Source: Caballeronia sp. dw_276
GTDB lineage: Bacteria > Pseudomonadota > Gammaproteobacteria > Burkholderiales > Burkholderiaceae
Assembly (NCBI RefSeq): GCF_018449635.1
Contig: NZ_JAAVUV010000008.1
Span: 62,001 to 126,000 of the forward strand
Direction: 5' to 3'
DNA length: 64,000 bases
Shown here piece after piece: positions 35,301 through 37,763 of this stretch. The position numbers and the translations under genes are program-made. The notes under the pieces were generated by a model. The model was not told the origin of the DNA and did no database searches. It saw only the letters and a program-made list of their open reading frames with translations. Position 1 is the stretch's first letter; each line of letters opens with the position of its first letter.

Positions 35301-36106
35301 CGATCCGCGCACGCATCATGCGCGAACGCGACCAACACATTGCTCGCGGACTGGACGAAAAGGAGGCGCGTTTGCGGGCGGGCTGGCGCGTGTTCAGCAC
35401 AAAACCCGGCGCGTACGGCGCGGGCTTGCAGGAGATGATCGACGCAAAGCAATGGCAGAACGACGCCGATCTTGCGCGCGGATTTCAAAGCTCAGGCGGT
35501 TACGCGTATTCGCAAAAGGGCGATGGCGTGGACGCGCGCGATTCGTTTGGCGCGAGGTTATCGACAATCGATGTGGTCGTGCAGAACCAGGATAACCGCG
35601 AACACGATTTGCTCGATTCCAACGACTATCACCAGTTTCAGGGCGGTATGGTCGCGGCCGTGCGGCATCTCTCGGGCACGCAGCCGCAAGCCTATAATGC
35701 GGATCACAGCAACCCCGCATCACCGCGCATTCGCACCTTGCAGGAAGAGATATCGCGCGTGATCCGCTCGCGCGTGGTCAATCCAAAATGGATCGATGGC
35801 GTGAAGCGCCACGGTTACAAGGGCGCGTCGGAACTCGCGGCAACGGTGGATTACCTCTTTGGCTACGATGCCACCGCGCGCGTGGTGTCGGATCATCAAT
35901 ACGCGCTCGTCGCCGATGCTTACGTGAACGACGCCGATACGCGCGAGTTCATGCGGCAGCACAATCCGCACGCGCTGCATTCCATCTGCGAGCGTTTGAC
36001 GGAAGCCATGCAGCGCGGTTTGTGGCAAAACCCGGGTGAATACCAGACGCAAATTGAACGCCATCTGCTGAATGCCGAACAGCAACTCGAAGGGCAACGA
36101 ACGTGA
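32333..36106 (+). CDS. cobN: Cobaltochelatase subunit CobN
   Basis: CobN is the large corrin-binding subunit of the ATP-dependent cobaltochelatase. The 1257 residues match the family. It starts at a GTG (32333) three bases after the cobW stop. Family hallmarks include [20 protein letters not shown], the later [30 protein letters not shown] split by normal spacing, and [19 protein letters not shown]. The stop overlaps the next start as GTGA. The partner subunits here are ChlI/ChlD-like rather than CobS/CobT. Confidence 0.96.
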   Translation: [1257 protein letters not shown]

Positions 36107-37098
36107 ACAACACTCTCTTTCCTTTCACTGCATTGGTCGCGCAAGCGCCCTTGCAGCAGGCACTTTTACTCGCCGCAGTCGATCCCGCACTGGGTGGCGT
36201 GCTGGTGAGCGGCCCGCGCGGCACGGCGAAGTCGACGACGGCTCGCGCGCTCGCCGAATTGCTCCCGGAGGGGCGCTTCGTTACCTTGCCCTTGGGTGCG
36301 AGCGAAGAGCAATTGATTGGATCGCTGGATATCGAAACCGCACTGCGCGATGGCGGCGTGCGTTTTTCCCCGGGCCTGCTCGCGAGGGCGCACGAAGGCG
36401 TGTTGTACGTGGATGAAGTCAACCTGCTGCCGAATCAGCTGGTAGATCAACTGCTCGACGTCGCTGCCAGCGGCGTGAACGTGATTGAGCGTGATGGTAT
36501 TTCGCATCGGCATGACTCGCGATTTGTGCTGATCGGGACGATGAATCCCGAGGAAGGCGAACTCAGGCCGCAATTGCTTGATCGCTTCGGGCTTGCAGTC
36601 GAACTGCAGAATTGCTTCGATGCCAGCGTGCGTCGCGAGATCGTCAAGGCGCGGCTTGCGTTCGACGAAAACCCTGGCGCGTTCCGTTCGCGGTTCGCTG
36701 CACAGCAAGAGGCGTTGGCACAACGTATCCTCAATGCGCGTGCAGCGCTTCCGAACCTCGAATTCGATGACGCCGTTCACGCGCGCGTCAGCGAGTTTTG
36801 CATCGAGGCCCATGTGGATGGCTTGCGTGCCGATCTTGTCATGTTGCGCGCGGCGCGTGCGCTGGCTGCATTCGAAGACGCCGATGCGGTTCGCGTGGAC
36901 CATGTCGAGCGCATTGCAGAAGCGGTGCTTTCGCATCGGCGCAAGCTCGGCAACGCGCCCGCGAGCAACCGCGAGCGCAAAGAGCAGCAACCGCACCAAC
37001 AAGACACTGACGAAGCCACTTTCGGCTACATGCCGCCCGAGCCCGTCGATATAACCGCGGTAAAAAACGTGAGGCCGCTCACGTCAAAAAAATCCTGA
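36103..37098 (+). CDS. ChlI-like AAA+ cobaltochelatase subunit; zero-frame product
   Basis: A 331-residue magnesium-chelatase-type AAA+ ATPase that starts at a GTG overlapping the cobN stop. Walker A SGPRGTAKSTTARAL lies near residues 36-50 and Walker B VLYVDEVNLL near 105, followed by the sensor region LIGTMNPEEGELRPQLLDRFG. Translation in this frame ends with ...LTSKKS and a TGA at 37096-37098. Just before that stop are seven A residues placed as A_AAA_AAA, and the -1 frame continues directly into a VWA domain. This short form would serve as the small (ChlI-like) chelatase subunit, and the frameshifted 553-residue form as the medium (ChlD-like) one. Confidence 0.9.
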   Translation: MNNTLFPFTALVAQAPLQQALLLAAVDPALGGVLVSGPRGTAKSTTARALAELLPEGRFVTLPLGASEEQLIGSLDIETALRDGGVRFSPGLLARAHEGVLYVDEVNLLPNQLVDQLLDVAASGVNVIERDGISHRHDSRFVLIGTMNPEEGELRPQLLDRFGLAVELQNCFDASVRREIVKARLAFDENPGAFRSRFAAQQEALAQRILNARAALPNLEFDDAVHARVSEFCIEAHVDGLRADLVMLRAARALAAFEDADAVRVDHVERIAEAVLSHRRKLGNAPASNRERKEQQPHQQDTDEATFGYMPPEPVDITAVKNVRPLTSKKS

Positions 37099-37138
37099 GC
37101 CATCGAACGCCGGCTGAATCTGGCCGCATTCGATGGCT
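37069..37138 (+). promoter_or_regulatory. Candidate programmed -1 ribosomal frameshift signal
   Basis: Three standard elements line up. A Shine-Dalgarno-like GTGAGG is at 37069-37074. The slippery heptamer A_AAA_AAA is at 37086-37092 in the zero frame (codons TCA AAA AAA). After a 5-nt spacer, AGCCATCGAA (37098-37107) pairs perfectly with TTCGATGGCT (37129-37138), extendable by two G-T pairs. The zero-frame stop TGA is at 37096-37098. A second, weaker heptamer A_AAA_AAC lies at 37062-37068 in the same register. The layout resembles dnaX. Frameshifting in chlD genes of cobalamin producers has been reported. Confidence 0.75.
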
Positions 37139-37763
37139 TGATCCTTTCTCTCCAGGCAAAACACGATCCCGCGATGGCGATGCGAGCGCGCACATCGACT
37201 GGATTCAGACGTTGTTGGCCAAACGCAATCGGCCGCTCGACGCAACGCACTTGCGCTTTCGTCGCGAAGAGGGCGAGGCGAGTGCGCTGCATTGCTTTGT
37301 GCTCGATTGCTCGGGTTCGATGCTCGGTGGCAAGCGTCTCGCGCTTGCAAAGGGACTTGTCGTTGCGTTGTTCGATCGCGCGTATCGGGAACGTGCCGAA
37401 GTCGCGCTGGTTTGTTTTGGCGGCCCGACGGCCGAGGTGCGTCGTGAGCCAGGGGCAGCGCACTGGTGGAACGACCGGTGGCTTGCGCCCATTGGCGGCG
37501 GAGGCGGAACACCGCTCGCGTTGGGTGTACGCACAGGCGCGAACCTGTTGCTGCGGACTGCGCGCCACAAGCCTTCGCAACGTCGCATCCTGTGGTTGCT
37601 CACCGACGGACGAAGCGCTGAAACGCCGGCACGTCCGGATTTGGCGGATCAGATCGTGATTGTCGATTTCGAAAATGAGGCCGTGAGTCTTGGTCGCTGC
37701 GCCAAGCTCGCCGAGTCGTGGCATGCGGACTATCTCACGGCCGCCGACATGACTCAGGCTTGA
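37092..37763 (+). CDS. ChlD-like VWA domain, reached by -1 frameshift from the AAA+ gene
   Basis: This frame, -1 relative to the AAA+ gene, encodes 223 residues after the slip: a basic linker (ILSHRTPAESGRIRWLD), then a von Willebrand A domain. The MIDAS residues are clear: DCSGS (DxSxS) in FVLDCSGSMLGGKRLA, a Thr in GGGGTPLALG, and the Asp of LLTDGRSAE. Upstream the frame opens at 37011 but has no ATG, GTG or TTG until a TTG at 37212, which would cut off conserved linker and lacks a ribosome site. The natural reading is a 553-residue AAA+/VWA fusion starting at 36103, the ChlD-like medium subunit that works with CobN. A homopolymer miscall is the alternative. Confidence 0.8.
   Translation: MLSHRTPAESGRIRWLDPFSPGKTRSRDGDASAHIDWIQTLLAKRNRPLDATHLRFRREEGEASALHCFVLDCSGSMLGGKRLALAKGLVVALFDRAYRERAEVALVCFGGPTAEVRREPGAAHWWNDRWLAPIGGGGGTPLALGVRTGANLLLRTARHKPSQRRILWLLTDGRSAETPARPDLADQIVIVDFENEAVSLGRCAKLAESWHADYLTAADMTQA

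What the first reader, a model, noticed from the sequence alone, without database searches (positions are those of the whole stretch)
36103..37763. Candidate programmed -1 frameshift making both ChlI-like and ChlD-like cobaltochelatase subunits from one gene
Seen: the AAA+ frame (36103-37098) contains A_AAA_AAA at 37086-37092 in register for -1 slippage, a TGA 3 nt later, a perfect 10-bp stem (37098-37107 with 37129-37138) after a 5-nt spacer, and GTGAGG 11 nt upstream. The -1 frame continues as a conserved-looking linker and a VWA domain with intact MIDAS, yet has no ATG, GTG or TTG before 37212. Known: ChlD is AAA+ plus VWA, ChlI is AAA+ alone, and programmed frameshifting in chlD of cobalamin producers has been reported. 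Inferred: unshifted product (331 aa) is the small subunit, shifted product (553 aa) the medium subunit, both serving CobN. No separate chlI, cobS or cobT is in the window. The Burkholderiaceae form, with a dnaX-like three-part signal, may be little described.
Basis: partly seen in the sequence, partly recalled or inferred. Interest (0 to 1): 0.85.

Follow-up and report, generated by a model that had tools for sequence, protein, structure and literature searches.

The report
Ribosomal frameshift yields two chelatase subunits
A vitamin B12 gene of a soil bacterium very probably makes two enzyme subunits by letting some ribosomes slip back one letter; the trick was already published for this gene and for Burkholderia, and here it proves to be strictly conserved across the bacterium's relatives.

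Summary
A_AAA_AAA (37086-37092), a TGA three bases later and a stem join a ChlI-like AAA+ frame to a VWA frame in -1; the genome is Caballeronia-like. It is not a sequencing error: of 150 related loci read (155 genomes matched), 143 have the same arrangement of slippery heptamer, one sense codon, stop and VWA in -1. A stem follows in 142 of 143, with compensatory changes. Synonymous conservation peaks at the heptamer. Four loci read A_AAA_AAG, only six A, which favours ribosomal over polymerase slippage. CobN lies next door and no second ChlI-like gene was found. The upstream GTGAGG is not conserved as a motif. The system is known: a 2013 survey named Burkholderia among -1 magnesium-chelatase frameshift genes and measured 10% for an A_AAA_AAA cassette in E. 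coli; later papers proposed that chlD thus makes both cobaltochelatase subunits. Caveat: some relatives carry a fused gene beside CobN without a separate ChlI, so need for the short product is unproven. A link between heptamer and tRNA-Lys(CUU) is suggestive but phylogenetically confounded.

The parts
36103..37098 (+). zero-frame ORF, 331 aa, AAA+ (ChlI-like) = unshifted small subunit; GTG start overlaps the cobN stop (36104-36106)
   Evidence: TIGR02442 positions 88-333; TIGR02030 341.8 bits, below its 466.95 cut-off; solved ChlI/BchI chains, E down to 3e-85
37086..37092 (+). slippery heptamer A_AAA_AAA
   Evidence: A_AAA_AAA in 139 and A_AAA_AAG in 4 of 143 related junctions
37096..37098 (+). 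zero-frame stop TGA, one sense codon after the heptamer
   Evidence: same place in 143 of 143: TGA 140, TAG 2, TAA 1
37097..37107 (+). 5' arm of the stimulatory stem
   Evidence: (pairs 2-7 kept in 140-142 of 142 loci)
37129..37139 (+). 3' arm of the stimulatory stem
   Evidence: compensatory changes at pairs 4 and 5
37092..37763 (+). -1 frame after the slip: linker and VWA (MIDAS) domain, 223 codons plus stop; shifted product 553 aa = medium (ChlD-like) subunit
   Evidence: TIGR02442 positions 458-639; BchD VWA chain 2x31, E 1.3e-12
37069..37074 (+). GTGAGG, possible Shine-Dalgarno-like enhancer; role doubtful
   Evidence: same hexamer in 19 of 39 genus loci and 1 of 104 other family loci; energy test inconclusive
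32333..36106 (+). cobN, large subunit of cobaltochelatase, directly upstream
   Evidence: TIGR02257 1568 bits, cut-off 822; only CobN/ChlH-type match in the genome
31028..32329 (+). cobW, upstream in the same run of genes (start codon not settled)
   Evidence: TIGR02475 479.6 bits, cut-off 332, on 31181-32326
30843..31089 (+). cobalamin riboswitch ahead of cobW-cobN-chlD
   Evidence: RF00174, 64.8 bits

Best explanation
This is a frameshifted chlD (fs-chlD) gene of the aerobic cobaltochelatase. Most ribosomes read the zero frame and stop at the TGA, giving a 331-aa ChlI-like AAA+ subunit. A fraction, held up by the stem just past the stop, let two tRNA-Lys (anticodon UUU) slip from A_AAA_AAA one base back, pass the stop and make a 553-aa AAA+/VWA, ChlD-like subunit. 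Both would join CobN to insert cobalt. Shown here by sequence: the signal, its conservation and covariation, domain content of both frames, CobN next door, no second ChlI-like match. Inferred: that slippage happens in this organism, its rate, and that both products work with CobN.
For: 143 of 150 loci read (of 155 matching genomes among 299 searched) have a VWA frame in -1, a slippery heptamer, one codon and a stop; 78 of 78 named loci with a VWA hit also have it in -1, 76 of 80 with the same heptamer-codon-stop. The stop is kept although its codon varies (TGA, TAG, TAA). Stem in 142 of 143; pairs 4 and 5 change on both sides (A-T 125/G-C 15; T-A 121/C-G 18) and 45 distinct arm pairs are 92.8% paired against 82.5% in 2000 shuffles, none as high (the shuffles ignore relatedness, and each locus's 3' arm was picked as the best partner, which leans towards pairing). 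Synonymous codon identity is 0.90 in the 12-codon window at the slip and 0.41-0.76 in every other window, 39 genus loci. A_AAA_AAG in 4 loci leaves only six A, against RNA polymerase slippage. Halves match one profile. All 155 matching genomes are among the 166 with a CobN/ChlH-type match (lists compared), and each has one AAA+ match at E 1e-20. Published cassettes of this gene family shift at 10-63% in E. coli.
Against: No expression data for this organism. Relatives in the same family (L152-L155) carry a fused frame and CobN, with no A-rich heptamer in the linker (one TTTGGGA in L152) and no second ChlI-like match, so a separate short subunit is not needed in every lineage. One of 144 split loci (L126) has its AAA+ frame closed before the junction and six instead of seven A, perhaps homopolymer errors, perhaps decay. 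In 71 of 143 loci the open -1 frame has some ATG/GTG/TTG upstream of the slip, so internal starts cannot be excluded everywhere. A_AAA_AAA is much less shift-prone than A_AAA_AAG in E. coli (review passages).
Confidence: 0.93

Rival explanations
1. RNA polymerase slips on the A run and adds an A to some messages, so that ordinary translation of edited mRNA makes the long product.
For: Seven A in a row in 139 of 143 junctions; Thermus dnaX uses such slippage (review passage).
Against: Four family loci have A_AAA_AAG, only six A, with frames, stop and stem unchanged, and all 41 Pseudomonas junctions of the common form have A_AAA_AAG. That six A is too short for efficient polymerase slippage is recalled, not tested. 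The run always sits in ribosomal register, and a downstream RNA stem with compensatory changes is not expected for polymerase slippage.
Confidence: 0.04
2. Internal or coupled initiation: the VWA frame is translated from its own start, making a separate VWA protein.
For: In 71 of 143 loci the open -1 frame holds a start codon upstream of the slip, 41 of them at the same place 24 codons upstream (37 TTG, 3 GTG, 1 ATG). In 31 of 143 an SD-like 4-mer precedes some start within 70 codons after the slip.
Against: No start is common to all: 72 of 143, the window included, have none upstream, and the first one downstream lies anywhere from codon 1 to 76. It explains neither the heptamer, the fixed stop nor the stem.
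Confidence: 0.04
3. The frame break is a sequencing error or a decayed gene.
For: A homopolymer is a typical place for such errors; L126 looks like one.
Against: 143 loci from separate genomes share the break, the stop and (142 of them) the stem, and both halves remain conserved in the genus.
Confidence: 0.01
4. The small subunit of this CobN is made elsewhere, for example by the CobS-like/CobT-like pair found about 52 kb beyond the window, and the split gene does something else.
For: The pair exists in the window's genome.
Against: Scores are far below cut-off (121.8 of 558.55 and 92 of 759.05 bits) and its neighbours are an efflux-pump-like gene and a threonine aldolase, not cob genes. A CobT-like match is absent in 18 of 39 split-gene genomes and present in 9 of 40 genomes with no CobN match. 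The split gene directly follows cobN.
Confidence: 0.03

Closest known systems
fs-chlD / magnesium-chelatase -1 frameshift family (GeneTack cluster, PMC3711429; fs-chlD model, PMC9227772; review PMC5009743)
   Same: Overlapping AAA+ and VWA frames, -1 shift at A_AAA_AAR, downstream structure, small and medium subunit from one gene, CobN as partner; Burkholderia is named in the 2013 cluster and an A_AAA_AAA cassette shifted 10% in E. coli.
   Different: Nothing in mechanism. Added here: counts across Burkholderiaceae, compensatory changes in the stem (the review calls the structure's sequence 'not strongly conserved'), and a comparison of heptamer with lysine tRNA genes. Whether the 2020 paper, which I could not read, already holds some of this is unknown.
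E. coli dnaX -1 frameshift
   Same: A-rich heptamer and a stem a few bases downstream; makes two subunits of one complex.
   Different: In dnaX the shift makes the short product; here it makes the long one. dnaX uses A_AAA_AAG and an upstream Shine-Dalgarno element; here A_AAA_AAA, and the upstream element is unproven. (dnaX product lengths and spacing recalled.)
TIGR02442 putative cobaltochelatase, fused single frame
   Same: Same domains and CobN in the same genome; the window's two frames match its two ends.
   Different: One continuous frame (profile of 641 positions) with a longer linker and no A-rich slippery site in the linker of the family loci read.

Membership tests
fs-chlD (frameshifted chlD) | upstream AAA+ (ChlI-like) frame and downstream VWA frame in -1 | tested here: met
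fs-chlD (frameshifted chlD) | A_AAA_AAR heptamer in register at the junction, stop just after | tested here: met
   143 of 144 split family loci, the other being L126
fs-chlD (frameshifted chlD) | RNA structure a few bases downstream | tested here: met
fs-chlD (frameshifted chlD) | CobN in the genome and no separate small-subunit gene | tested here: met
   (one CobN; next AAA+ match only E 5.2e-7); the CobS-like gene is far below cut-off
fs-chlD (frameshifted chlD) | measured frameshifting and both products in the cell | not testable with these tools
   only published cassettes of relatives; their source species were not in the passages seen
dnaX-like three-part signal | upstream Shine-Dalgarno-like stimulator under selection | tested here: inconclusive
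   at or below -5 kcal/mol in 82 of 143 against 26% of background windows, but sequences are related and share amino acids; GTGAGG itself in 19 of 39 genus loci, 1 of 104 other family loci, and in named Cupriavidus, Denitromonas and Thauera loci
ChlI (TIGR02030) as a separate equivalog | score over the curated cut-off | tested here: not met
   341.8 of 466.95 bits, so it is ChlI-like, not filed as ChlI
CobS/CobT | score over the curated cut-offs of TIGR01650/TIGR01651 | tested here: not met
   one search lists neither family for the two halves; for the genome

The most novel reading that the evidence does not exclude
The slippery heptamer of chlD is tuned to the lysine tRNA set: where a tRNA-Lys(CUU) gene exists, AAG would be read by a non-slipping tRNA, so the gene must use A_AAA_AAA; where it is missing, A_AAA_AAG is used. 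Counts fit (CUU gene in 39 of 42 A_AAA_AAA genomes, 7 of 38 A_AAA_AAG genomes), but on a tree only a few changes are independent and the sign test gives p about 0.5.
Probability: 0.35. Interest if true: 0.45.

Novelty: new member of a known kind. Interest (0 to 1): 0.3.

Why it matters
It supports with many genomes that one B12 gene makes two subunits by recoding throughout much of Burkholderiaceae, so annotation that splits the gene or calls it broken would be wrong. One gene with either A_AAA_AAA or A_AAA_AAG across relatives is also a clean setting to test whether lysine tRNA content shapes slippery sites; for IS elements a survey found that tRNA-Lys(CUU) does not preclude AAG motifs (46 of 83 species, passage).

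Tried and rejected
Shine-Dalgarno enhancer: energies toward the 16S 3' end are stronger upstream of the heptamer (82 of 143 at or below -5 kcal/mol, background 26%), but sequences are related and encode a shared V-x-PL stretch; left as inconclusive. Internal VWA start: no common start. CobS/CobT-like pair as the true subunits: rejected. A reverse, dnaX-style signal in fused genes: 14 fused or near-fused loci checked (4 family, 10 class-level); three have a lone non-A-rich heptamer (L152, L248, L241), one AT-rich locus (L246) has many by composition, ten have none. tRNA-heptamer link: strong raw counts (Fisher 3.7e-12), not independent of phylogeny. Plasmid records H2 and H4 carry no annotation of the stretch at all, so they say nothing about how the gene is annotated. 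A first class-level junction table mis-oriented minus-strand loci and was redone. Papers: PMC9227772 read in parts 1-3 of 4; PMC3711429 outline, section 24 and passages; PMC5009743 section 18 and passages; PMC4066793 passages; the 2020 Mol Biol Evol paper on fs-chlD was not held and is known to me only from a reference list and recall.
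Full report
What is there. The zero-frame ORF 36103-37098 (331 aa) begins with a GTG that overlaps the cobN stop and ends TCA AAA AAA TCC TGA. A_AAA_AAA lies in register for -1 slippage at 37086-37092. An 11-pair stem (10 Watson-Crick, one G-U) starts at the second base of the TGA; MFE -26.2 kcal/mol, z -4.84. 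The -1 frame runs to 37763 and encodes a linker and a VWA domain with a DCSGS metal site (the motif name is recalled). The AAA+ half matches TIGR02442 at 88-333 and the VWA half at 458-639, so they are the two ends of one cobaltochelatase profile; each half alone scores below that model's cut-off. Solved relatives are ChlI/BchI for the first half and the BchD VWA domain (2x31) for the second. The gene follows cobN and cobW behind a cobalamin riboswitch.

Whose it is. The closest named relatives are Caballeronia (C. udeis 80%, C. sordidicola 83%, Caballeronia sp. dw_19 83% identity in the AAA+ part). The window is 64 kb of a 6.79-Mb assembly.

Conservation. In 299 family genomes 155 have an AAA+ match at E 1e-20, one match each. 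I fetched 150 of the 155 loci (G008, G029, G037, G038 and G253 were not fetched). In 143 the VWA frame lies in -1 and the junction reads heptamer, one codon, stop: A_AAA_AAA 139, A_AAA_AAG 4; TGA 140, TAG 2, TAA 1. L126 has its AAA+ frame closed upstream and six A at the site. L150 and L151 have a stand-alone ChlI-size frame of 339 aa (L150 scores over the TIGR02030 cut-off). L152-L155 have one fused frame (L153 and L154 score over the TIGR02442 cut-off, L152 does not, L155 was not scored). Among 80 named loci from a genome scan, 76 show heptamer, one codon, stop; two contigs end before the junction (L185, L208), one has a stop near the start of the match (L226) and one has its stop directly after the heptamer (L232, Pseudomonas koreensis). 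All 78 with a VWA hit have it in -1. So Variovorax, Rhodoferax, Azoarcus, Thauera, Denitromonas and Pseudomonas share the arrangement. The scan kept the best 80 of at least 586 candidates, so it is not a census.

Selection on the signal. A perfect stem of at least 6 bp starting at or just after the stop is found in 142 of 143 loci; the exception, L016, has a mismatch inside the arm. In 142 loci pairs 2 to 6 are paired in all and pair 7 in 140, pair 8 in 137, pair 9 in 125, pair 1 in 114; pairs 4 and 5 switch between A-T and G-C, and T-A and C-G, on both sides. Distinct arm pairs (45) are 92.8% paired, shuffled partners 82.5% (sd 1.1), 0 of 2000 as high. This control ignores relatedness, and the 3' arm of each locus was chosen as its best partner, which leans towards pairing. 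In the 39 loci of the genus, codon identity among residues that agree is 0.90 in the window at the slip and 0.41-0.76 in every other window.

Which machine slips. Four family loci and all 41 Pseudomonas junctions of the common form have A_AAA_AAG, which leaves six A. The same frames, stop and stem position are kept, so ribosomal slippage is favoured over polymerase slippage; the length that polymerase needs is recalled, not tested. No start codon for a separate VWA protein is common to the set: 72 of 143 have none upstream of the slip in the open -1 frame, 71 have at least one.

The three-part claim. Exact GTGAGG stands at that place in 19 of 39 loci of the genus (GTCAGG in 12 more) and in 1 of 104 other family loci, where GTGGTG, GTGATC and GTCATT are commonest; it recurs in named loci of Cupriavidus, Denitromonas and Thauera. 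Predicted pairing with the 16S 3' end is stronger than background (82 of 143 at or below -5 kcal/mol against 26%), but this may come from shared amino acids and descent. I call it inconclusive.

Does both-products-from-one-gene make sense? A CobN/ChlH-type gene is in 166 of 299 family genomes, which include all 155 with the AAA+ match; the other 11 all belong to one genus code, g3 (lists compared). The window's genome has one CobN and no second ChlI-like gene. It has a CobS-like and a CobT-like gene side by side about 52 kb beyond the window, far below the family cut-offs and among unrelated genes. Over 80 genomes, a CobT-like match occurs in 21 of 39 split-gene genomes, in 9 of 40 without CobN and in the one fused-gene genome tried, and never passes the cut-off, so it does not track cobaltochelatase. 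Against necessity of the short product: the fused-gene genomes G017, G053, G105 and G121 have a CobN-type match, a single AAA+ match and no A-rich heptamer in the linker (L152 has one TTTGGGA). How they do without a separate small subunit is open.

Heptamer and tRNA. Over 80 genomes with the split gene (39 of the 144 family ones, 5 from the class search, 36 named), a tRNA-Lys(UUU) pattern is found in 80 of 80. A tRNA-Lys(CUU) gene, by a strict or a relaxed pattern, is found in 39 of 42 with A_AAA_AAA (one of the 42, G489, has a longer A run) and 7 of 38 with A_AAA_AAG. The seven are four Burkholderiaceae, Thauera, G620 (relaxed pattern only) and P. serbica (strict pattern only, beside odd tRNA-like matches). 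The three without are Hydrogenophaga, a Giesbergeria MAG of 1.7 Mb and G489. On a tree of the AAA+ domain there are 7 heptamer changes and 6 CUU changes, and independent pairs give p about 0.5. The idea is attractive because AAG paired by a CUU anticodon should slip poorly, but it is not shown. A 2014 survey of IS elements found AAG motifs in 46 of 83 species with both lysine tRNAs (passage).

What is known. The 2013 GeneTack paper reports a cluster of 23 magnesium-chelatase genes with a -1 shift from six genera, Burkholderia among them, and 63, 40 and 10% shifting for 11, 9 and 7 A in E. coli. The 2016 review describes the A_AAA_AAR site in Pseudomonas, Delftia and archaea. The 2022 paper states that the signal lets chlD make small and medium subunits and proposes this for cobalt chelatase. 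The 2020 paper it cites for this was not held. Of my literature searches on the gene only named Burkholderia, and it listed the 2013 paper alone; the others also listed PMC10743472, PMC8651126, PMC7242693 and PMC3534718, which I did not open. So the finding is a well-supported new member of a published family, not a new mechanism.

Noticed in passing
window 25800-25955 (+), 30488-30760 (-), 30843-31089 (+), 42187-42363 (-): Four cobalamin riboswitches in one B12 cluster, two of them back to back between divergent genes.
   Followed up: no
L236 4283-7185 (window genome, about 52 kb beyond the window): CobS-like MoxR ATPase and CobT-like VWA pair beside an AaeB-like pump gene and a threonine aldolase; function unknown; CobT-like matches occur also in some genomes without CobN.
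   Followed up: partly
family genomes of genus code g3, e.g. G045, G138, G145: 11 genomes have a CobN-Mg_chel match but no chlD-like AAA+ match at E 1e-20, and other g3 genomes have two such matches: perhaps a second, different CobN-like paralog.
   Followed up: no
L152-L155: Fused cobaltochelatase-type gene in genomes with CobN but no second ChlI-like match and no A-rich slippery site in the linker: how the small subunit is supplied is unclear.
   Followed up: partly
L126: Only split locus of the family set with the AAA+ frame closed early and six A at the slip site; it looks like homopolymer errors or decay.
   Followed up: partly
G695 C1:105522-106705 (Pseudomonas serbica): A CUU-type lysine tRNA match beside two atypical UUU-type ones within 1.2 kb, possibly a mobile-element tRNA array.
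   Followed up: no
L239, L240: A_AAA_AAG junction followed by a second run of eight A about 30 bases past the stop.
   Followed up: no
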